A stretch of 64,000 bases of DNA from an uncultured Methylococcaceae bacterium (GTDB lineage Bacteria; Pseudomonadota; Gammaproteobacteria; Methylococcales; Methylomonadaceae). Each line of letters opens with the position of its first letter. Within the stretch, counting starts at the first letter, position 1. The position numbers and the translations under genes are program-made. Positions 1-13,091 of this stretch are shown here, in pieces. The notes beneath the pieces were generated by a model, which did no database searches, had not been told where the DNA came from, and was given only the letters and a program-made list of their open reading frames with translations. Location: positions 1 through 64,000 of the forward strand of contig CAIPPE010000180.1 in NCBI GenBank assembly GCA_903866825.1. Reading direction: 5' to 3'.

Positions 1-60
1 AAGAAATACTTGCAGGGCGCTATTTTAAAGCCACCCGATTTGACTAATAGCGTGTGCTAA
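1..60 (+). CDS. 3' end of an ORF entering from the left edge (..KKYLQGAILKPPDLTNSVC*), product unknown
   Basis: Open frame from base 1 to TAA at 58-60; too short to identify. Confidence 0.25.
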   Translation, partial: KKYLQGAILKPPDLTNSVC

Positions 61-292
61 ATACCATCAATACTTAGAAACATGTTGTCAAGTTTATGCT
101 GAATTTTTTTGGCAGAGTTAGACTCAACTGATTTTTTTAGGATAATGATCTGTGGCTGTTTTTATAGTTGATAGCCTGCAAACGATATAGTCGGCGATTT
201 CTTAAAGCTATCCGTGGACTTCATTTGATCAGAAACCATCAGATAGCCCGAAGAAACACCAGATCTATCTGACAGCTTTAAACAAACGGGGT

Positions 293-988
293 TTAAATAC
301 CTATCAAGGCAGTTTGCACGTTACTCCATTCGCCATGAGGAACTCTATTATCCCACCAGCGTAAACGATACTCCCGAGTTTCGTGGATATTACCTTCAGC
401 AAGAGGGCGTTCATCGTAATAGGGCTTGAGGGTATCAATAGCAAGAAAAGTCCACTCCCCACCATTAATACGACATTCTATCCAAACCCCGTCATGACCA
501 TACAGATTAAAACTTATCACGGCACGTTGACCCGAATTACCCAGTTCTACTAACACATCAGGAATGGGGACTAAATGTTCTGTTGTATTCATTGAAGAAA
601 TAATACCTAAATCATAACCCATCGCATCAGTGTAGCCAAGGCTCACTTTAATACGGTTAATCTGACTTGTTAAACGGTTTTTAATGCCCGGCTTAGGTGC
701 TGCCGGAGCATTAGGAAATACAGAAGGTAGAGGGTAATTAATCGTCTCATTACCAGAACCTGATACCATCAGGGTTTTATAAACGGTGGAGTCCTTAGCG
801 TCACGTTGAACGCTCGGATGCCAGTGTTGCAGCATCCAGATGTAATAAGTAAGATCCGTTTGCGATTGTTGAATTTCCTGATCACTAATGCCGCAAACAG
901 CCCCGTATACCGGTAATTTTAAACTGTAGTGCGAAAGCCAGACAATTTGTTGGTCATGCGTTGTTGGAAAATAAGAATTTATAGTCAT
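293..988 (-). CDS. Hypothetical protein (likely start MTINSYFPTTHDQQ at 988 rather than 1033)
   Basis: ORF track; MTINSYFPTT start looks more natural than the upstream extension. Confidence 0.6.
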   Translation of the reverse strand: MTINSYFPTTHDQQIVWLSHYSLKLPVYGAVCGISDQEIQQSQTDLTYYIWMLQHWHPSVQRDAKDSTVYKTLMVSGSGNETINYPLPSVFPNAPAAPKPGIKNRLTSQINRIKVSLGYTDAMGYDLGIISSMNTTEHLVPIPDVLVELGNSGQRAVISFNLYGHDGVWIECRINGGEWTFLAIDTLKPYYDERPLAEGNIHETREYRLRWWDNRVPHGEWSNVQTALIGI

Positions 989-1194
989 AATAAGAAGAGC
1001 TTCGGCTAGGTTAAGTTGCCCGCACAACATCATGAGTAATCAATGCTGCGATGAGTTGGCAGAAAATATAAGCTATTAACCGATAAGTTCTAATCCATAA
1101 GCTACTCGCCCAATTGAATGACTGTCAACATAAATATAATTTAATTGGAGCAATGTTAAATTCCAAACTCTAAGACTCAATAAGCCTGTTGGAC

Positions 1195-1416
1195 GCGGTC
1201 GCTAACACCGATGACTAGCTCACTATCTCCGGCAGCGAGGTCGCTAGCACTGATGACTAGCTCAATATCCCCGGCAGCGAGGTCGCTAGCACTGATGACT
1301 AGCTCAATATCCCCGGCAGCGAGGTCGCTAGTACTGATGACTAGCTTAATATTCTCGGCAGCGAGGTCGCTAACACCGATGACTAGCTCGCTATCTCCGG
1401 CTGAGAATTCGCTATC
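1195..1416. repeat. Tandem repeat, 42-bp unit, 5 copies plus partial sixth
   Basis: Units beginning at 1195, 1237, 1279, 1321, 1363, partial 1405; consensus gaggtcgctagcactgatgactagctcaatatccccggcagc. Confidence 0.9.
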
Positions 1417-1489
1417 AACCCTATTTTTGTCAATATAGTCGGCAACGACAATAGCAAAGGTATATCAATCATGCTTTGAAGCAATGTTT

Positions 1490-1655
1490 TTAAACAGCCC
1501 AATCTTCTATTCTCAAATCAGTAATGCGTTCAAATTTACGTACATTATGCGTAATGATTGTCGCGTTTATCGATAATGCCTGGTAGGCAATCCAAAGATC
1601 ATTGCATCCAATAGGTGTTCCAGCAGTTTTTTTTATCAACTTACAAGTTATCATT
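1490..1655 (-). pseudogene. C-terminal remnant of a VapC-type PIN-domain toxin
   Basis: Reverse strand reads ITCKLIKKTAGTPIGCNDLWIAYQALSINATIITHNVRKFERITDLRIEDWAV*, the canonical VapC C-terminus; no N-terminal half or VapB visible. Confidence 0.75.
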
Positions 1656-1773
1656 AATCCGCTTAAACAGGTATGACTTTATCCCTCAGTTCAGTTACTC
1701 TATATCCGGTTATAGTTTTTCGCTTTACATTATTAATCTATGCATTTAGCAACCACTTAATGACTATCCCAAA

Positions 1774-3321
1774 ATGCCACTGAAAAGTGCTTGCCCTCTG
1801 ATTACTGCTTTAACCAGTGCTGAAGCCTATCAACATCCGGTTAAATCTGTCAGTCTTGTTGAGACTCATATTTCCTGGGTGTTATTGACAGGCGATTACG
1901 CCTATAAAATCAAAAAGCCGGTCAACTTTGGTTTTCTGGACTTCTCCACTTTAGACAAACGTGCATTTTTTTGTCATGAAGAAATAAGGCTTAATCAACG
2001 TTTCTCACCTGACTTGTATCTTGAGGTCGTCGCCATTACAGGGACGCTAGACAAACCCCAAATGGGTGGAAGCGGAGATGTTCTAGATTACGCGGTTAAG
2101 ATGCTTCAGTTTCCTGGCGGACAGACACTCAGTGAACGCGCTGAACAGGGACAGTTAGCTGTTGATGAAATTGATCAACTGGCTAAGAGTGTTGCAGATT
2201 TTCATCTTACTATAGGAAACGCCACAGAAATATCTGCTTATGGACAGAGTACAGAAATTAAATATTGGTTTGATGAGAATTTTACTCAGATCAACCCTAT
2301 ATTGATCGAGGCAAAACACAAAACGCAATTGCAAAAGATCCAGCTTTGGGGGGACCATGAATGGAGCAACAAAGCGGATTTAATGCAACTGAGAAGGGAG
2401 CAAGGTTATATCCGTGATTGTCACGGCGATTTGCATTTAAGTAATATAACCCTAATCAATAACAAAGTCAGATTGTTTGATTGTATTGAATTTAATCCCA
2501 TGTTTCGTTGGATAGATGTCATCAGTGAAGTGGCCTTTTTAATGATTGACCTACTACATTTGGGCTATGAAAATTACGCGCACCGTTTTCTTAATCATTA
2601 TTTGCAAGTGACTGGCGATTATAAAAGCGTTGCCTTGTTAAGATACTATCTCGTTTACCGTGCACTGGTCTTTGCTAAAATCGCTTTATTGCGGGATACG
2701 CAACTATCCAATACTGACGACTCCAATAAACTCCGCTATAGCAGCTTTGCTAATCTGGCTGAACGTTACACCGAAGTCACAACACCTAAATTAATCATTA
2801 CGCATGGCTTTTCTGGTTCCGGTAAATCAACCTTTTCACAAAAACTGGCAGAAAAAATCGGTGCCCTGCAGATACGTTCAGATATAGAACGTAAACGACT
2901 GTTTTGTCATCAGGCAACTAAAAATGAGGATAGTAAAGTGGGGGCAGGACTTTATACACCACAAATAACACAAGAACTTTATCGCTATCTTGCCCAGTGT
3001 GGGAAAACAATAATGCTGGCAGGATTTTCTGTCATTATTGATGCAAGCTTTCTTAAAAGAGAACAAAGAGACCAGTTTCAACAACTGGCTATTGAGTGTA
3101 ATGCACAATTAATAATTCTTGATGTTCAAGCGTCTAATGAAGAATTATGTCGTCGCATAGTCAATCGCCAAAATGACTCATCAGAAGCGACTATTGACGT
3201 TTTGCATCATCAGTTACAATCAGTAGAACCCCTATCTATTGAAGAACACCCCTATGTTATTGCGATTGATACCGAAGCCAACAACACATTCGAAACACTC
3301 ATAGGCCAGTTGATAAAATAA
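1774..3321 (+). CDS. Bifunctional aminoglycoside phosphotransferase-like / P-loop AAA kinase protein
   Basis: DCHGDLHLSNI kinase-like catalytic motif in N-half and GFSGSGKST Walker A in C-half. Confidence 0.8.
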   Translation: MPLKSACPLITALTSAEAYQHPVKSVSLVETHISWVLLTGDYAYKIKKPVNFGFLDFSTLDKRAFFCHEEIRLNQRFSPDLYLEVVAITGTLDKPQMGGSGDVLDYAVKMLQFPGGQTLSERAEQGQLAVDEIDQLAKSVADFHLTIGNATEISAYGQSTEIKYWFDENFTQINPILIEAKHKTQLQKIQLWGDHEWSNKADLMQLRREQGYIRDCHGDLHLSNITLINNKVRLFDCIEFNPMFRWIDVISEVAFLMIDLLHLGYENYAHRFLNHYLQVTGDYKSVALLRYYLVYRALVFAKIALLRDTQLSNTDDSNKLRYSSFANLAERYTEVTTPKLIITHGFSGSGKSTFSQKLAEKIGALQIRSDIERKRLFCHQATKNEDSKVGAGLYTPQITQELYRYLAQCGKTIMLAGFSVIIDASFLKREQRDQFQQLAIECNAQLIILDVQASNEELCRRIVNRQNDSSEATIDVLHHQLQSVEPLSIEEHPYVIAIDTEANNTFETLIGQLIK

Positions 3322-3345
3322 TCAATTTAACTTCGGGAATACCTA

Positions 3346-4305
3346 ATGCATATTGATGTCTTTAATGGTGATGCCGATGGAATTTGTGCCCTTATTCAAT
3401 TACGATTGGCAGAACCCGTCATTAACGCAACGCTTGTTTCAGGCGTAAAAAGAGAGACAGCGCTTTTAAACAAGGTATCAGTACAAGCCAATGATTTTGT
3501 CACAGTGCTCGATGTTTCTTTAAAAAAGAATCGCCTTGCTCTTGATACTATTTTGCAACAGGGTGCTTTTGTGTTTTATGTTGACCATCATGAAACAGGA
3601 GAAATCCCGGCATATCCCAACCTTAAAATGATTATCAACACGGCAGAAGACACCTGCACCAGCCTGCTAGTTGATCATTACTTATCAGGGAAGTATCGAG
3701 CGTGGGCATTAACGGGAGCTTTTGGTGATAACTTACTGGCTAAGGCCGAGGAGCTTGCTAAAATATTATCATTAACTACAAAACAATTTGAGCAATTAAA
3801 GTCATTAGGTACTTGCCTTAATTATAATAGCTACGGAAGTTCTATCGCTGATCTCCATTTTGCGCCTGATAGACTATACCAGTCATTAGCCATCTATAAA
3901 TCGCCCTTTGAATTTATCAATGACAACCCAGTGATTTATGAAAAACTATTATGTAGCTACTATGATGATATGACCCAAGCCCAACGTATTCTCCCTGAAT
4001 ACCTAACAAATAAAGTAAGTGTCACTATACTGCCAGATGACGCCTGGGCAAGACGTGTGAGTGGCGTACTAGGCAATCATTTAGCTAATCTTTATCCTGA
4101 ACAAGCTCATGCTGTTATGAGCGTAAATTCCCAAGGGGGGTATCTAGTCAGTGTTAGAGCGCCTTTAATAAATCCGGTTGGTGCTGATGAACTGTGTTCG
4201 TTATTCAGTACTGGAGGCGGTAGAAAAAGAGCGGCTGGCATCAATCATTTACCTTCTGATCAACTGGCATTTTTTATGAGTACTTTCTCGGCTAAATACA
4301 AATAA
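3346..4305 (+). CDS. DHH-family phosphoesterase-like protein
   Basis: MHIDVFNGDADGICAL N-terminus, VDHHETG motif, C-terminal GGGRKRAAG (DHHA1-like). Confidence 0.75.
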   Translation: MHIDVFNGDADGICALIQLRLAEPVINATLVSGVKRETALLNKVSVQANDFVTVLDVSLKKNRLALDTILQQGAFVFYVDHHETGEIPAYPNLKMIINTAEDTCTSLLVDHYLSGKYRAWALTGAFGDNLLAKAEELAKILSLTTKQFEQLKSLGTCLNYNSYGSSIADLHFAPDRLYQSLAIYKSPFEFINDNPVIYEKLLCSYYDDMTQAQRILPEYLTNKVSVTILPDDAWARRVSGVLGNHLANLYPEQAHAVMSVNSQGGYLVSVRAPLINPVGADELCSLFSTGGGRKRAAGINHLPSDQLAFFMSTFSAKYK

Positions 4306-4418
4306 GGGGTGGCTTATCCTAGCCCACGCTATCCAGTTTGACAATCGCTCGAAATCAGCTACCTTGTTTAATTAAAGCATCAATAACTACTATAACAACA
4401 ATACGCTGAGGACTCCTG

Positions 4419-4805
4419 ATGAAACGATATAATTACTTTTGGATTTTTGTTTTAATGCTGGCTTCCAGCACTTCCTGGGCTTACGGTGGCGGCAGTAGCA
4501 GCTCAAAAGCCTGTGCCAAACCCACCTTTAGTGATTTTGTTCCTGCAGAAAATGCCGAAGTTGCGGCGGGTGCAGAGTTCTCATTTACGGCATCTGCAAA
4601 CACTCACCCCGAGAGCATTAAGGTGTCCGTAAAAGGACAGCCAACTGATATCAAGGTATCACCCAAAAATGGGGGCAGTGCTTTTGAGGTCAGCGGAACG
4701 TTACCCGCTTCATTAAAAGCCACTTACGCCAGAATTGCCATTGAAGCGGATGCCCAAAGCAATTGCAATGGCGGAGGTGGTTGGCTGGTGAAAATTAAAG
4801 ACTGA
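4419..4805 (+). CDS. Secreted hypothetical protein with Ig-like fold
   Basis: Signal peptide MKRYNYFWIFVLMLASSTSWA, downstream beta-rich domain. Confidence 0.55.
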   Translation: MKRYNYFWIFVLMLASSTSWAYGGGSSSSKACAKPTFSDFVPAENAEVAAGAEFSFTASANTHPESIKVSVKGQPTDIKVSPKNGGSAFEVSGTLPASLKATYARIAIEADAQSNCNGGGGWLVKIKD

Positions 4806-5042
4806 CTTTTTTGAAGCATCTGGGGGGTTGTTGGTTCAACGTCGACTTTTCCCTAGCATTTCGGCATAAGGAAATGCCATAAAAACCCGCAAGATGTTTT
4901 ATTCATTGATGCCAGTCAGTATTCAGAGTCAGCTATTGATCGAGAAGTTCTTAAGTAAGGCGAACCTCAAATTCGCATTTAAATATGCAGAATAAGATTC
5001 TGATCATTGATGTTTGGGGGCAGGGGGTACCTGGTCTGTTGT

Positions 5043-5420
5043 TCACAAATGCCATAGCACCACTGTATGTTCCTGGCAGATTTTTTCACTATCATTTTGG
5101 GAGAGCAGTTCTTTGGTTACACCACATAAAAAACTGTCATCCATGGTCGTAAAATAATGGCAAGTCTTGCATAGACCAAACGATTGTGACTGATTAGCTT
5201 TCTCCAATAACGACAAGCTCTGAGAAACCGTGCCTTTGGTCATACCTAGATAATTTGTCAGTGCTGCTGGAGTATCGCTGTATTTATTGCAACGCGATAA
5301 GTAGTTTAGGGCTTGTAAATGCACTGTTTGCAAACCAACTGCCGTACATTTTTTTCGTTCTTCTGAACGAATTAAAGCCGCAATACGCTCAATCAAATCG
5401 AACAAGTCTACTTTTTCCAT
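5043..5420 (-). CDS. MarR-family winged-helix regulator with Cys-rich C-terminus
   Basis: MTKGTVSQSLSLLEK recognition-helix-like segment; LCKTCHYF..LCG..ICQEH cysteine cluster. Confidence 0.65.
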   Translation of the reverse strand: MEKVDLFDLIERIAALIRSEERKKCTAVGLQTVHLQALNYLSRCNKYSDTPAALTNYLGMTKGTVSQSLSLLEKANQSQSFGLCKTCHYFTTMDDSFLCGVTKELLSQNDSEKICQEHTVVLWHL

Positions 5421-5752
5421 AGCGGCTATAGCTTATATAATTAGCGAAACGGCTTAGTTAGAACGCTTGCCTTGGCCCGTTGTTTCTCCTCGTCAATTTA
5501 ATTGACAAGATTTGCAACATTATAGCAAATCCATTTTTTCTGGTGAAATATTGCAACGGTCAGTACTGTTACTAGATGCGCTTTAAATGTTCACCCTTTG
5601 CTTCTGGTAAATAAAAAAGCTACATTCCACTATCACAACGCTTTTCTTATTTGCATTATTTGAATCGCAGTCATAGGCTTTGGCTATTGCAACTCCATTG
5701 AAACCGCCTACAGAGTAGAGTTGATCCCAGACTATGTAAAGTACCGAACCAT

Positions 5753-5776
5753 ATTCGATATTTATTAGTATCGAAT
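5753..5776. promoter_or_regulatory. Inverted repeat ATTCGATA-N8-TATCGAAT upstream of a TTGACA/TATAGT promoter
   Basis: Seen directly; the putative promoter follows at 5787-5792 (TTGACA) and 5811-5816 (TATAGT), 18-bp spacer. Confidence 0.6.
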
Positions 5777-5850
5777 CAAAAATTAATTGACATTGCCTTT
5801 AGATTATCTATATAGTATCGACTCGAAATAAATATTAAGAGGTAATTAAT

Positions 5851-6043
5851 ATGAGTACTGCAATTTTTTATCATCCGGGTTGCCGTGTTTGTTTAGAGGC
5901 GGAGCAAAGGGTAGTCGAAGCTATTGATCGTTCAAAATATCAGGTTGAAATAGTGGAAAGAAAAAGTGCCATCTTGAAGATGTGGTTGTTACCTGCAAAC
6001 GCATTAAACCGGGATCGGTAGGGATGTTGCCAGGTAAAAGCTA
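5851..6043 (+). pseudogene. Truncated/frameshifted thioredoxin-fold protein
   Basis: MSTAIFYHPGCRVCLEAEQRVVEAIDRSKYQVEIVE.. with CxxC, then frame change; 57-codon ORF ends 6021, other frame continues KCHLEDVVVTCKRIKPGSVGMLPGKS* to 6043. Confidence 0.45.
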
Positions 6044-6149
6044 ACCAAACCTTTTTAACATTTGACTCCTATCTTTAGGGTCGATAAAAACAATCAATAA
6101 TAGCGAATCAATACCTGTAGCGACTTATCAAACTGCGAGGAAGTAAATA

Positions 6150-6470
6150 ATGAAAATAAAAAAAATCGCAATCTGCATCTGCATATCAGCATTCCTTTTC
6201 TCACTTAATGCCTTTGGACTTGAAAACCAGGAGCACACCAGAAATGGTAACCCAAATCAAATGCCTGTGAACAATCAGGTCGCCTTTAATCCAGTAAATA
6301 AAGAGGGTACAAGATTAGTAGGTACAGATACTGCTCAACATAAAATATTAAATGAATCACCCATTAAAACTCAAGATGTCGATTTTTTTACTAAATTTTG
6401 TATCCTTTTGGGTATCACGATGTTTTATTGGATACATTGGCTAATAAGCACTAAGCCTCATAAAAATTAG
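6150..6470 (+). CDS. Hypothetical secreted/membrane protein
   Basis: N-terminal signal-like segment and a C-terminal TM (FCILLGITMFYWIHWLI). Confidence 0.45.
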   Translation: MKIKKIAICICISAFLFSLNAFGLENQEHTRNGNPNQMPVNNQVAFNPVNKEGTRLVGTDTAQHKILNESPIKTQDVDFFTKFCILLGITMFYWIHWLISTKPHKN

Positions 6471-6480
6471 CCTAAAATAA

Positions 6481-6673
6481 CAAGAAATCGTTCATGCCCG
6501 ATTCAAAACAATTTCTCTTGTCTTCCACAAAAGCGTTGGCGGTCATCGCCAAAATGGGAATATCCATGCCGTCAACCAGAAAGTACTACCCCAACATCCA
6601 GAGCTTCTTGAAGTTTCTGACGCTGAATGATTTCTTGGGTCAGTTGCACGGTGCGTTGCGCGAGCTTATCTGA
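6481..6673 (-). pseudogene. Remnant of a hybrid sensor kinase / response regulator
   Basis: Reverse strand reads SDKLAQRTVQLTQEIIQRQKLQEALDVGVV (kinase linker) then, in another frame, DGMDIPILAMTANAFVEDKRNCFESGMNDFL (receiver C-terminus). Confidence 0.7.
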
Positions 6674-7174
6674 CTACGTTACACTGCCACTCCTTAAAAT
6701 ATCTATTATTTCAGGGTGGATAAAAATAAATCAGATAGTTATATATACGAAAGACACCGGTTTAGATATCTTATCCGTTCGTCCTGGTATCAAAAACTGC
6801 CTTATTAAGACCTTAAGCGGTTCTTTTAATATCCAAATTTTGTATACTGTTAACAAAATTATTGATATTTGCCAAGCGGGACATGTTAAATCAGGTTTCA
6901 AGGATTATCAGGTGTTTGACTTTAATGGCACTGAAGCCATTAAACATAAATTGAATGAAGTACAGCTAGCAGAAGCCATAGCACAGTGTAATGCTAAGTC
7001 GGCAATGACTACACTGTTACTTTAAAAAGAGGATATTAGTTGCCAAATACCATAAGCTGAAACTTAAGAAATTCAGGTGTTCCGGATCCTTGGTTTAAAA
7101 TTTCAACAGCAGGTAAGCCCTATCAACAGAACACAAATTATCAAATCAATATCTTTATCAATCTTGAAGCAGGA

Positions 7175-10000
7175 ATGACAGTGAGTCTTATTCAATATGG
7201 CTTTCAAAAGCTAGTCTTACTTAATAGTGCGGGTTATAGTCGTGCCGAATTACCGCTGGATGATTCGGTATCTATTATTGCCCCCAATAACACTGGCAAA
7301 ACCAGCTTGATTAATGCCTTACAATTTCTGTTAATCCTTAACAAGCAGCACATGGACTTTGGGGCGCATAGTTTTGAAAACACCAAGCGCTTTTATTTTC
7401 CGGATAACAGCGCTTATATCTTATTAGAGATATTATTGCCCTCTGGTATGGCAGTGATTGGTTGTGTGGGTAAAGGGTTAAGCCATGATTATGAATACTT
7501 TGCTTATCAAGGCAGTCTTGACTTAGACGATTATCGTTTAGACGATGGCAAATTAGTCGCACAACCTAAATTAATGGCCCGTTTATTTGAACGCGGTAAA
7601 CCCGCCAAGATTTATCCACAGGCAGAGTTACGTGCCTTACTTTATGGAAATAAACAAAAACAACGTTCCGATGAACCCGATTTAACGATATTCCCTTTAG
7701 AGTTCACCTCGCAAGCGGCCACTTACCAACGCATCTTAACGCGCACTTTACGCCTGGATCGTTTAGACAGTCGAGAAGTTAAAAACTACTTACTAGAGAT
7801 CTTTAAAAACGACTTACAGGATCGTAATGTTGATTTTAAGAACGAGTGGGATAAATCCTTTGCCGATGTAAATTATGATAAATCCCAGTATGATGTGGTG
7901 TTTCGCAATCAAGGACGTATTGCGAACATGGAAGACAGCCAGCAACAGCAACGCGGTTTAAGAGGTAAATTAATTGCCTGGCGTCCCACCCTAGAACAAG
8001 GCCTTAATGAGTGGGAAGCGTACTATCATAAAGAGAATGACCAATTCACTCAGCAACAACAGGCTTTAACACTGACTGTTCAAAACCTGGAAAGCCGTCA
8101 AAAAGCCATTTACAAAGAACAAGCCGGGGTAGATGCTACTTTAAAAGAACAACAGAAAATTGCTCAGCAGCATCAAGAACTCAGTATTCGTTTTGAGTTT
8201 GTGAGTGACTTAAAACAACTGCAAACTCAACGCGAACTATTGCAAGAGCAACGCGATGAGCTAGTTAGAGTAATTAAAAATGCCGAACAACAAACCTCCA
8301 CCGACGCGATTAAACGTACGATTGCAAAACTGGAACAAGAGCAACAGGCGCTTAAACGCCAATTAGCCAGTCTGCATAATAATTTGTATCTACAACTGCA
8401 AAACTTATTACCGGCTCATCAGTTTGAGTTACTGACCCGTTTATTAGCTAAATCGGTTTTAAGCTTGCCTGTAGGGACAGATACTGCCGCGCAATTAACG
8501 GATAGCTCTGCCTTCAAAGAGTTTGCTGCTTTGCTAGGCAAACACTTAACAGCAGAACAGTTAATATTACCGGGCTTATCCTTAAATTTATCGTCCTTAG
8601 AACCCAATCTACTGATTAAAACCGCGCAAGAACTGGAAACAGAGCTTGATGATATCGCGCGTCAATTAGCCGAGTCTCAACAGTTACTGCAAACGCTGGA
8701 AACCTTAGCGAAACAAAAAGCCGAACAAACTCGCTTAGAACAACAAATAAACCTGTTAGATACCGATATAAAAGACTATCAACTCTGGCTATCTTTACAA
8801 GAATCAGCTTCAGCCAGACAGCAGCAACTCACCGACTGCACAGCAAAGCTTGCAGAATTAACAGACGAAGAAGCCAACCTGGCTGATCAGAAGAAACTTC
8901 TAACTCAGCAACAAGAACACAGTAAAGGCGGCCAAAAAGAGCTACTTAATCAGCACCAACGTATTCATCAAGCTCGGCAACAACGCTTGGATCAGCAAGC
9001 GCCGTTTACATTTCTGAAACAACTCCCCTTTATACCCTACATGGAAACCGCCACGTGGGTGATGTCTAGCTTAGCGGATCATATTGAGATTTATAATAAA
9101 GATTGCCGCCGCCTCAGAGATTTAGATGATGTACTGCATCGTCAATTGAGTGATTTACATATCGACGGCGTGAATAAGTTTCAAAACCAGGATTCTATTG
9201 AACAAGAGCTAGAAGCCTTATTTGCCTACACCGCTAATTTAAGTAAAGAACAAGCGGCCATAGAACGTAAAGCCCGTTCTGCCGTGGTACAAGTGGCGGC
9301 TATTTTACGTGATTTACGGGACAGCCTGGAAACCCTTAAACGTCGGATGCGCGAGTTTAATCATAAGATCAACAAACGTCAGTTGTCTGATTTAAAGGTG
9401 TTTAAAATAGAACCCAGAGAAGAAGAATCGCTGGTTAAAGCCATACAAATTTTAATCTCCACCTCTGAATTAGTCGAGTCGGGAGATTCATTTGATTTAT
9501 TTGACCAAAACACCGTACTGGATGATAAAGAGCTGAATCGCGCTAAAGATATTCTAATTAAAGAAGGTGAAGCACGAGGCGGCTTGCGGGTAGAGCATTT
9601 ATTCAGGTTGGTGTTTATTATTGCCAAAGAAAATCAAGCCCCCGCAGAATTTGAAGATATGGACAGTGCCGCGTCCAATGGAACCGTATTAATGGCAAAA
9701 CTCATCACCGGCTTAGCGATGTTGAACCAAATGCAAGATCCTCGTAAAGCTATTAAGACGGCTTGTTATCTGGATGAGGCGGCCTCATTGGATCAACATA
9801 ATCAGCGCAATCTGATAGAAATTGCCACTGAGTTTGGTTTTACGCTTATCTTCGCTTCACCTGAACCCCAAATCACTGCACGTTATTGTGTGCCGATTGG
9901 CACTACAAACGGTAAGAACTATATTAGCCGCATCAATTGGCAAATTTTAGAACCCCTGAGTAATGAAGCGCTCGATGAACTGGTTAATGAACCAGCATGA
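7175..10000 (+). CDS. SMC/JetC-like coiled-coil ATPase
   Basis: Walker A-like IIAPNNTGKTSLINAL; very long Gln/Glu-rich coiled coil; C-terminal SNGTVLMAKLITGLAML (signature-like) and TACYLDEAASLD (Walker B). Confidence 0.8.
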   Translation: MTVSLIQYGFQKLVLLNSAGYSRAELPLDDSVSIIAPNNTGKTSLINALQFLLILNKQHMDFGAHSFENTKRFYFPDNSAYILLEILLPSGMAVIGCVGKGLSHDYEYFAYQGSLDLDDYRLDDGKLVAQPKLMARLFERGKPAKIYPQAELRALLYGNKQKQRSDEPDLTIFPLEFTSQAATYQRILTRTLRLDRLDSREVKNYLLEIFKNDLQDRNVDFKNEWDKSFADVNYDKSQYDVVFRNQGRIANMEDSQQQQRGLRGKLIAWRPTLEQGLNEWEAYYHKENDQFTQQQQALTLTVQNLESRQKAIYKEQAGVDATLKEQQKIAQQHQELSIRFEFVSDLKQLQTQRELLQEQRDELVRVIKNAEQQTSTDAIKRTIAKLEQEQQALKRQLASLHNNLYLQLQNLLPAHQFELLTRLLAKSVLSLPVGTDTAAQLTDSSAFKEFAALLGKHLTAEQLILPGLSLNLSSLEPNLLIKTAQELETELDDIARQLAESQQLLQTLETLAKQKAEQTRLEQQINLLDTDIKDYQLWLSLQESASARQQQLTDCTAKLAELTDEEANLADQKKLLTQQQEHSKGGQKELLNQHQRIHQARQQRLDQQAPFTFLKQLPFIPYMETATWVMSSLADHIEIYNKDCRRLRDLDDVLHRQLSDLHIDGVNKFQNQDSIEQELEALFAYTANLSKEQAAIERKARSAVVQVAAILRDLRDSLETLKRRMREFNHKINKRQLSDLKVFKIEPREEESLVKAIQILISTSELVESGDSFDLFDQNTVLDDKELNRAKDILIKEGEARGGLRVEHLFRLVFIIAKENQAPAEFEDMDSAASNGTVLMAKLITGLAMLNQMQDPRKAIKTACYLDEAASLDQHNQRNLIEIATEFGFTLIFASPEPQITARYCVPIGTTNGKNYISRINWQILEPLSNEALDELVNEPA

Positions 10001-10875
10001 GTATGCTTACAGAAGCTTTAAGGCGTCTGATAGCGGAGGATGAGTTCTCTTTAACAACGTCTGCTTTTACAAAAAAGCAACGTCAAGCCTTAGAGCAATT
10101 TGCTCGGGATACCCGGTTACTAGAGCTGGTTAAACAAGGTAGAAGTACGGTTTATAAAGTGCTTAATCGCCAAAGTATACTCAACTATCTACAACAACAG
10201 CACCCGATAGCTGCGAGTGACTTACCGGCTGATATTCCAGAACGCAGTCGTAATATAGGCTTGGATAGAAATAGTAAAACCGGAAAGACCCGACACGCTT
10301 GTTACTATCTGCTTATGAAAGCGTGGGATGCCAAGGTCGTTTGGCAAGATAACACCCACTGCTTACAAGTGGCGGATTTAACCGAACGCTTTGGGGTAGC
10401 CAGCCTGCAAATTAAAGCCGAGTCAACGTGGCAGTGTACCGGCGCCCCAATCCTCTTAGTCGAAAATCAGGCTTTGTTTGATCAATGTGACTGGTTGCCT
10501 GCCGACTTTAGCGGTTGCCTTATTTACTACGGCGGACAATTATCCGACTTATTATTACACTGGTTCTCAAGCTACAAACGTGCAGATACTGTGATCTTAT
10601 TCCCTGATTATGATGGTGTGGGGTTAAGTAACTATGTACGCTTAAAACAAGCGCTATCTCCTGAGACGACTTTACAGTTTTATTGGCTATCGGATTGGGA
10701 AGATAAATTACAACGCTACGGTAATGCAGAAGTGTGGTTAAACACCCGTCAGGTCTTTGAAAACGCCTTTCAAAAACTCACCACGTTGCAACTCTTAACT
10801 GAAGACTTTATTAAGCTGGGACAGTTATCCCAACGCTACGGTAAAGTGTTAGAACAAGAAGCGATCTGGTTATAA
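9997..10875 (+). CDS. wHTH plus TOPRIM-like protein (JetD/MksG/TopoVI-A-like)
   Basis: ILLVEN conserved Glu, IYYGGQLSDLLLHW, VILFPDYDGVGLSNYVRLKQ (DxD..G); ATGA overlap with the upstream ATPase. Confidence 0.7.
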   Translation: MSMLTEALRRLIAEDEFSLTTSAFTKKQRQALEQFARDTRLLELVKQGRSTVYKVLNRQSILNYLQQQHPIAASDLPADIPERSRNIGLDRNSKTGKTRHACYYLLMKAWDAKVVWQDNTHCLQVADLTERFGVASLQIKAESTWQCTGAPILLVENQALFDQCDWLPADFSGCLIYYGGQLSDLLLHWFSSYKRADTVILFPDYDGVGLSNYVRLKQALSPETTLQFYWLSDWEDKLQRYGNAEVWLNTRQVFENAFQKLTTLQLLTEDFIKLGQLSQRYGKVLEQEAIWL

Positions 10876-10880
10876 AGATA

Positions 10881-13091
10881 ATGAAACCGCTGATTTTTAA
10901 AGTCGCCCTTCCGGTGCCTCTTTACCGATTATTTGATTACCTTCCCCCTGAAGGCGTTGATGGTGCTTTGATTAAACCAGGGGTTCGCTTAGAAGTGCCT
11001 TTTGGAAAAGATACTAAGACAGCTGTGCTGATTGAAATTTGTGAGCACAGTGAGTTAAGCACGGATAAATTAAAGCATGTGCTGAGTGTGTTAGATGATA
11101 AGCCGTTGTTGTCAGCCAAAGATTTACAGCTATTGCAATGGGCGAGCCATTATTATCATCATCCCTTAGGTGAGGTGATTAGTACGGCTATTCCCAATGC
11201 ACTTCGTCAAGGCAAAGCGATGACGATCAAGGCAGAAAAGCATTATGCCTTGACTGAGTTAGGGCGAACAACTGATAGCAATACTTTAAAGCGCAGCCCT
11301 AAACAAAAATGTGTCCTGGATAAGTTTCAATCTAGTACGCTTGACTTATCAGAGGCTGAGTTAACCGCGTGGAATAATCACTGGCGTCCTGCTGTGACGG
11401 CATTAATCCGTAAAGAGTTAGTAAGTATTGAACTGACCGAGTCGGTGTCTGCTGAGTCTAAAGCAATTATTCGTAATCCTCCACTGAATTGTAATTCTCA
11501 GCAACAGCAGGCGATTGATAGCGTTTGTCAAAAGCTGGGGCAGTTTGGGGTATTTCTATTAGAAGGAGTAACGGGCAGCGGTAAGACTGAGGTTTATTTA
11601 CAGATTATCCAGTCGGTATTAGCGCGAGGGCAACAAGTATTAATTCTGGTGCCAGAAATTACCTTAACCCCTCAACTCGAAGATCGTTTTAAACAACGTT
11701 TTGCTGTTGATATCGCGCTATCACATTCCAATCTGACCGATAAGCAACGACAAGCAGCATGGGTGCAAATGAAACAAGGCACTTGTTCAATTATGTTAGG
11801 CACCCGTTCGGCTTTATTTACACCGTTAAAAAACCCAGGCTTAATTATCTTAGATGAGGAGCATGATGCTTCTTTTAAACAGCAAGAGGGTTTTCGATTT
11901 TCTGCGCGGGATATTGCTGTGGTCAGGGCAAAACAGTTACATATTCCTGTTCTGTTAGGTTCGGCGACACCGTCTCTGGAAAGTTTGTATAACGTCGATA
12001 AGCAACGCTATCAATTATTGCATTTGCCCGAACGGGCAGGTACCGCACTGGCCCCCGTCTTACAATTAATGGATATTCGCAATAAGAGAATTCAGGAAGG
12101 CTTGTCTGAAGCGTTGGTAGTGGAGATGCATAAAACCCTCGCGAAAAATGAACAGGTCTTACTGTTTTTAAATCGACGGGGGTTTGCACCGACGTTAATT
12201 TGTCATAGTTGTGGTTGGGTGGCCCGTTGCCAGCGCTGTGATGCTAATATGGTGATCCATTTCGATGAAGCGCATTTAAAATGCCATCATTGTGGTCAAG
12301 AACAGGCTTTGCTTAAACAATGTCCGGCGTGTAAGGCGGGTGAGTTAATTCCATTAGGACTTGGAACTGAGCGAGTTGAAAAAGCACTTGCAGACATTTT
12401 TAAAGATAAGGTGACTGTTCGATTAGATCGTGATTCCACGCAACGAAAAGGCTCCTTAGAGAATTACTTACAACAAATTAATGTCGGGCAAGTTGATATT
12501 ATTTTAGGCACTCAAATGTTAGCTAAGGGGCATCATTTTCCTAATGTGACCCTGGTCGCTATTCTGGATGTGGATAGTGGCCTGTTTAGTATTGATTTTC
12601 ATGTGGCTGAAAAACTGGCCCAAATGATTGTGCAGGTGTCTGGGCGTGCAGGCAGAGCCGAGAAGCCAGGAAAAGTCATTATGCAGACCCGACAACCTGA
12701 TCATCCGCTGTTGGTGACGTTAATACAACAAGGTTACCGTAGTTTTGCTAAATCAGCTTTACAGGAAAGAAAAGCAGCGGCCTTACCGCCTTTTAGTTAT
12801 CAGGCTTTGTTAAGAGTACAATCGGTAGATATCAAGATGCCACAAGATTTTTTTAAAGCATTGGCTGGTTTGATAGAAAAACATAATACCGGACAGACTC
12901 AGATACTAGGTCCTGTCTTTGCTCCTATGGCCCGGCGTGCTGGTCTTTACCGATATCAATTGTTGTTTCAAAACGTAAGGCGTCAGGAGTTGCATGTTTT
13001 GCTTGATGCCTTAATAACAGAAATTGCGAAGCTTAAACAGGCAAAAAAAGTACGCTGGTCTTTAGATGTTGATCCTGTCGATTTATATTGA
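10881..13091 (+). CDS. priA: Primosomal protein N' (PriA helicase)
   Basis: LLEGVTGSGKTEVYLQ, LDEEHD, zinc-binding CxxC pairs, GTERVEKALA. Confidence 0.95.
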   Translation: MKPLIFKVALPVPLYRLFDYLPPEGVDGALIKPGVRLEVPFGKDTKTAVLIEICEHSELSTDKLKHVLSVLDDKPLLSAKDLQLLQWASHYYHHPLGEVISTAIPNALRQGKAMTIKAEKHYALTELGRTTDSNTLKRSPKQKCVLDKFQSSTLDLSEAELTAWNNHWRPAVTALIRKELVSIELTESVSAESKAIIRNPPLNCNSQQQQAIDSVCQKLGQFGVFLLEGVTGSGKTEVYLQIIQSVLARGQQVLILVPEITLTPQLEDRFKQRFAVDIALSHSNLTDKQRQAAWVQMKQGTCSIMLGTRSALFTPLKNPGLIILDEEHDASFKQQEGFRFSARDIAVVRAKQLHIPVLLGSATPSLESLYNVDKQRYQLLHLPERAGTALAPVLQLMDIRNKRIQEGLSEALVVEMHKTLAKNEQVLLFLNRRGFAPTLICHSCGWVARCQRCDANMVIHFDEAHLKCHHCGQEQALLKQCPACKAGELIPLGLGTERVEKALADIFKDKVTVRLDRDSTQRKGSLENYLQQINVGQVDIILGTQMLAKGHHFPNVTLVAILDVDSGLFSIDFHVAEKLAQMIVQVSGRAGRAEKPGKVIMQTRQPDHPLLVTLIQQGYRSFAKSALQERKAAALPPFSYQALLRVQSVDIKMPQDFFKALAGLIEKHNTGQTQILGPVFAPMARRAGLYRYQLLFQNVRRQELHVLLDALITEIAKLKQAKKVRWSLDVDPVDLY

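What the first reader, a model, noticed from the sequence alone, without database searches (positions are those of the whole stretch)
7175..10875. Two-gene SMC-like ATPase plus TOPRIM protein cassette without kleisin/KITE partners
The 941-aa protein has SMC/Rad50-type architecture: N-terminal APNNTGKT P-loop, about 500 residues of coiled coil, and a C-terminal signature-like SNGTVLMAKLITGLAML with Walker B CYLDEAASLD. Its stop overlaps (ATGA) the start of a 292-aa protein with an N-terminal wHTH and a JetD/MksG/TopoVI-A-like TOPRIM pattern (ILLVEN ... IYYGG ... FPDYDGVGL). Wadjet (JetABCD) and MksBEFG also contain kleisin and KITE subunits; neither is visible here, as the next gene is priA and upstream is remnant DNA. 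The N-terminal P-loop glycine is replaced by Ala and the signature is not LSGG-like. This could be a minimal plasmid/phage-defence or DNA-topology-sensing nuclease system related to but distinct from Wadjet.
Basis: partly seen in the sequence, partly recalled or inferred. Interest (0 to 1): 0.75.

Follow-up and report, generated by a model that had tools for sequence, protein, structure and literature searches.

The report
Half of a split Wadjet-like operon
The two genes are the DNA motor and the probable DNA-cutting subunit of a four-part plasmid-defence-type machine (Mks/Wadjet group); the two parts reported missing are present elsewhere in the same genome, because an insertion has split the operon in two.

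Summary
In detail: window 7175-10000 encodes a 941-aa SMC-type ATPase and 9997-10875 a 292-aa wHTH+TOPRIM protein, overlapping by ATGA. The 'two-gene cassette without kleisin/KITE' reading does not hold. In every related locus with enough upstream sequence, except three close relatives, a 414-aa kleisin and a 188-aa KITE lie directly upstream. In the window's own genome both are present and intact on another contig (C83:14817-16615). In a close relative (G032) they lie on the same contig, about 8.1 kb upstream, separated from the SMC gene by an insertion that carries a complete Gabija system. Among 35 same-genus genomes, exactly the same 13 have the KITE and the SMC. All four genes stay open with dN/dS 0.01-0.12. 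The 'odd' Walker A and signature are shared by close family members. The kleisin model matches MukF and JetA; the TOPRIM model matches topoisomerase VI-A. Most likely this is an MksFEBG/Wadjet-group four-subunit system: SMC loop extrusion senses circular DNA and activates a TOPRIM nuclease. It is a divergent, largely unannotated member, also found as four-gene operons on large plasmids. The notable point is the split operon with defence genes nested inside it.

The parts
7175..10000 (+). SMC ATPase subunit (MksB in the literature's naming, JetC-like; NCBIfam calls this protein 'MksF'), 941 aa
7280..7303 (+). Walker A, APNNTGKT (residues 36-43); the Ala is shared by all Methylococcaceae members aligned and by G209, L022, L023 and G069
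9674..9703 (+). ABC signature region SNGTVLMAKL (residues 834-843)
9764..9793 (+). Walker B region CYLDEAASLD (residues 864-873)
9997..10875 (+). TOPRIM nuclease subunit (MksG/JetD-like, Pfam DUF7281), 292 aa: N-terminal wHTH, C-terminal TOPRIM
10462..10464 (+). TOPRIM glutamate E156 (LLVEN), invariant
10606..10614 (+). TOPRIM D204-x-D206 (FPDYDG), invariant
7136..7183 (+). right junction of the insertion: sequence shared by the three split genomes, followed by what may be the relic of the 3' tail of the KITE gene (a weak, inferred match to intact loci)
1..7135 (.). foreign or rearranged DNA upstream of the SMC gene, not part of the ancestral operon; only ~6900-7175 is shared with G032, and 1658-4805 lies on a different contig in G032

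Best explanation
The pair is the motor and nuclease half of a complete four-subunit MksFEBG (Wadjet-group) complex. Its operon was split between the KITE and SMC genes by an insertion, most simply in the ancestor of three close Methylococcaceae genomes. Shown: the kleisin and KITE are encoded elsewhere in the same assembly, all four genes are open and under purifying selection, and KITE and SMC co-occur perfectly in the genus. Inferred: the SMC dimer, bridged by the MukF/JetA-type kleisin and KITE, extrudes DNA loops with ATP; when a small circular DNA is fully extruded, the TOPRIM subunit is activated and cuts both strands, removing plasmids. This mechanism is taken from the experimentally studied JetABCD and MksBEFG (PMC10586767, PMC10123090). 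No activity was tested here.
For: Kleisin and KITE genes intact in G000 at C83:14817-16615, and in G027 and G032. In G032 one 77-kb contig carries kleisin-KITE, ~8.1 kb of insert, then SMC-nuclease-priA; G018 has the unbroken operon with matching flanks. 13 of 35 genus genomes have the SMC and the same 13 have the KITE. dN/dS: SMC 0.05-0.06, nuclease 0.10-0.12, kleisin 0.03-0.07, KITE 0.01-0.08 among the split genomes, no internal stops. Kleisin model: best PDB matches MukF and JetA. KITE: Pfam MksE 8.6e-30. Nuclease model: topoisomerase VI-A, E 6e-4; invariant E/DxD. Every genome tested has its own canonical SMC, while Mks is accessory (13 of 35), which fits defence better than an essential condensin. 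Related operons also sit on large plasmids of 76-904 kb.
Against: The three split genomes are draft assemblies (G027 and G032 match records titled MAG). In G000 the halves are on different contigs; C83 is 96.6% identical to G032 while the window region is 91.6%, so C83 could be mis-binned from a related strain, or the genome could be mosaic. No promoter-like site stood out on the + strand upstream of the SMC gene. Purifying selection cannot be dated fully to after the split. The nuclease's link to JetD is weak by sequence (PADLOC JetD1 6e-5; no match to a JetD1 profile built here). No functional data.
Confidence: 0.78

Rival explanations
1. A true minimal two-gene SMC+TOPRIM defence system that works without kleisin and KITE.
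For: In the window the pair stands alone and both genes are intact and constrained.
Against: Kleisin and KITE are present, intact and constrained in all three genomes of this arrangement, with perfect KITE-SMC co-occurrence in the genus. Every other relative with enough upstream sequence has the four-gene operon.
Confidence: 0.05
2. A decaying remnant: the insertion inactivated the system and the genes are drifting.
For: The operon is broken and the KITE gene's last ~9 codons are replaced; no obvious new promoter.
Against: All four genes lack internal stops and have dN/dS 0.01-0.12 at dS 0.18-1.1, like priA (0.069) and like the intact-operon pair L030/L031 (0.09-0.16).
Confidence: 0.12
3. A chromosome-organising condensin of MksBEF type rather than a defence system.
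For: The core subunits match the NCBIfam Mks condensin models best; Pseudomonas MksBEF contributes to chromosome organisation and lacks the nuclease (PMC10586767).
Against: The nuclease gene is retained with invariant catalytic residues; presence is patchy (13 of 35) beside a universal canonical SMC; plasmid carriage.
Confidence: 0.15

Closest known systems
MksBEFG (mksFEBG operon, Corynebacterium glutamicum; PMC10123090)
   Same: Four subunits in the order kleisin-KITE-SMC-TOPRIM nuclease; kleisin MukF-like; TOPRIM related to topoisomerase VI-A
   Different: Nuclease is the shorter DUF7281 type (290 aa); in this clade the operon is split; no activity shown
Wadjet type I (JetABCD)
   Same: Same subunit kinds and gene order; weak matches to PADLOC JetB1, JetC1 and JetD1
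   Different: SMC 941 aa versus profile lengths of 1097-1140 for JetC1; nuclease 292 aa versus 409 for JetD1; PADLOC matches weak and partial
MksBEF condensin of Pseudomonas (NCBIfam NF040857/8/9)
   Same: Near full-length matches of kleisin, KITE and SMC
   Different: All matches are below the curated cut-offs; this system retains a nuclease
Gabija (GajAB)
   Same: Also an ATPase plus TOPRIM defence system; a complete Gabija lies inside the split operon of relative G032
   Different: Different architecture; a neighbour, not this system

Membership tests
MksFEBG / Wadjet group (broad) | SMC subunit with Walker A/B and coiled coil, homologous to MksB/JetC | tested here: met
   NF040859 full length, E 1.2e-112, below the equivalog cut-off; motifs conserved
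MksFEBG / Wadjet group (broad) | MukF/JetA-type kleisin in the system | tested here: met
   414-aa gene in the same assembly; NF040857 2.6e-44 for its intact homologue; Foldseek best matches MukF and JetA, low-confidence C-terminus
MksFEBG / Wadjet group (broad) | KITE subunit | tested here: met
   Pfam PF21980 MksE, E 8.6e-30; own genome 4.4e-30
MksFEBG / Wadjet group (broad) | TOPRIM nuclease subunit with E...DxD | tested here: met
   nuclease activity itself not tested
MksFEBG / Wadjet group (broad) | Contiguous four-gene operon | tested here: not met
   Met in relatives, but split in the window's clade. An organisational feature, not a subunit requirement
Wadjet type I | Strong match to type I Jet models and JetD1 with DUF3322/DUF2220 | tested here: not met
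   Only weak partial PADLOC matches; no match between the nuclease and a JetD1 profile
Wadjet types II/III | Match to type II/III Jet models | tested here: not met
   No such matches for any subunit in PADLOC-DB at E<=1
Wadjet / MksBEFG function | Restriction of small circular plasmids | not testable with these tools
   Needs transformation and cleavage assays

The most novel reading that the evidence does not exclude
In this methanotroph clade the site between the KITE and SMC genes of a working Wadjet-group operon has become a place where other defence genes collect (Gabija in G032, a type I restriction hsdM in G027), so that the two halves are expressed separately and the motor-nuclease half is controlled independently of its kleisin-KITE half.
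Probability: 0.15. Interest if true: 0.5.

Novelty: new member of a known kind. Interest (0 to 1): 0.35.

Why it matters
It removes a claim of a kleisin-free SMC defence system and replaces it with a concrete case: a Wadjet-group complex apparently kept functional although its operon is split. Operon-based surveys that require adjacent genes, and the PADLOC models, would miss it. The DUF7281 proteins in such operons can be annotated as probable MksG/JetD-type nucleases; they are 'hypothetical protein' in the annotated plasmid records seen here.

Tried and rejected
Two-gene cassette: rejected after finding kleisin and KITE in the genome. PDB sequence search with single proteins and with profiles: nothing meaningful. 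Profile comparison of the nuclease with JetD1 homologues: not significant. Direct overlap of contig C83's end with the window's start: none found. Repeats of 25 bp or more flanking the G032 insertion, as a sign of a mobile element: nothing at the junctions. Promoter upstream of the SMC gene: no + strand candidate by the simple scan. Viral fold library: no significant match. Literature on DUF7281: no paper in the held library.

Full report
Observation. The window carries ORF 7175-10000 (+, 941 aa) followed, with an ATGA overlap, by ORF 9997-10875 (+, 292 aa), then priA at 10881. The first is a full-length relative of the NCBIfam Mks SMC subunit (NF040859, E 1.2e-112, 377 bits, below the 1900-bit equivalog cut-off). 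NCBIfam calls this 926-aa protein 'MksF' and the 412-aa one 'MksB', the reverse of the literature, where MksB is the SMC and MksF the kleisin (PMC10123090). The second matches Pfam DUF7281 (1.5e-6, just over its cut-off) and weakly PADLOC JetD1 (6.3e-5).

The motifs are not peculiar to this copy. APNNTGKT and SNGTVLMAKL are identical in all Methylococcaceae members aligned and in the more distant G209, L022 and L023 (44-47% identity); in still other relatives the P-loop varies (GENNKGKT, GANNLGKS, APNNRGKS). The TOPRIM E156, D204 and D206 are invariant in 16 homologues. The AlphaFold model (mean pLDDT 76; a central stretch is poor) has topoisomerase VI-A as its best PDB match (E 6e-4).

Kleisin and KITE. 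In relatives whose contigs reach far enough upstream, a 414-aa gene and a ~188-aa gene lie directly before the SMC gene, often overlapping. The 188-aa protein is a KITE (Pfam MksE 8.6e-30). The 414-aa protein matches NF040857 (2.6e-44), and its model, although of low confidence in the C-terminal part, finds MukF and JetA structures as its best matches. The exceptions are the window's genome and its two 95%-identical relatives, G027 and G032.

These three genomes have both genes as well: G000 C83:14817-16615, G027 C128, G032 C236. In G032 everything is on one 77-kb contig: kleisin-KITE, ~8.1 kb of insert, SMC-nuclease-priA, flanked as in G018, where the operon is unbroken. The KITE reading frames of all three diverge from the intact version right after the codons for AQAER; all three SMC genes are preceded by a shared short stretch. 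A single ancestral insertion with later turnover of the cargo is the simplest reading (inference). G032's insert carries GajA (1.5e-195) and GajB (6.8e-271), that is, a complete Gabija, plus a PIN-domain gene; G027's carries the start of hsdM and a short transposase-like ORF recognised by eye. In G000 the DNA upstream of the SMC gene is different again: a 3.1-kb block (1658-4805) that in G032 sits on another contig.

Is the split system alive? Among G000, G027 and G032, dN/dS is 0.05-0.06 (SMC), 0.10-0.12 (nuclease), 0.03-0.07 (kleisin) and 0.01-0.08 (KITE), with no internal stops, similar to priA (0.069) and to the intact pair L030/L031 (0.09-0.16). Of 35 genus genomes, 13 have the SMC and the same 13 the KITE; the chance of this under random placement is about 7e-10, ignoring shared ancestry. 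All seven genomes tested have a canonical SMC besides, so Mks is accessory.

Spread. Homologous nucleases occur together with the SMC in G209, G210 and G069 in the class. G221 has kleisin-KITE-SMC-like genes and no recognisable nuclease. Six plasmid records carry both SMC and nuclease relatives. Of the five loci fetched, the four annotated ones have two genes of kleisin and KITE size before the SMC gene; sequence matches confirm kleisin and KITE for Polaromonas and Halioglobus and the kleisin for Neptuniibacter. Annotated records call them 'hypothetical protein'.

Mechanism. From JetABCD and MksBEFG (PMC10586767, PMC10123090): SMC-kleisin-KITE motors extrude DNA, and the TOPRIM subunit cleaves small circular DNA once extrusion is complete. 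Applying this here rests on subunit homology and is not shown. A condensin role (MksBEF type) remains possible.

Novelty. The Wadjet group as a whole has been surveyed by iterative profile search for co-directional neighbouring genes (PMC7617805), so the four-gene family may already be in that survey; its supplementary list was not read. The split arrangement would be missed by such a search. I found no description of it in the held library, a limited search.

Caveats. The three split genomes are drafts. In G000 the halves are on separate contigs with different divergence from G032 (96.6% for C83, 91.6% for the window region), so mis-binning or recombination is possible; the conclusion rests mainly on G032's single contig and on all three genomes agreeing.

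Noticed in passing
G032 C236, L029:1645-5624: A complete Gabija (GajA-GajB) lies inside the split Mks operon of a close relative.
   Followed up: partly
window 293-1033 (-) and L064:16659-17354 (-): Two unknown proteins, 40% identical to each other and without Pfam match, one near the start of the window's contig and one just after the KITE gene on contig C83.
   Followed up: partly
window 1197-1401: Tandem array of a 42-bp unit, 4.9 copies.
   Followed up: no
window 1658-4805: Block with a 515-aa AAA_33 kinase-like protein, a DHH-like protein and a 128-aa protein; 88.5% identical to a block on another contig in G032, with unlike flanks in both.
   Followed up: partly
NCBIfam NF040857 / NF040859: The names MksB and MksF appear swapped relative to the literature (the 412-aa model is the kleisin, the 926-aa model the SMC).
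   Followed up: yes
G022 C667 (L016/L037): The SMC gene there is broken in frame near residue 40 (one TAA): a pseudogene or an assembly error.
   Followed up: no
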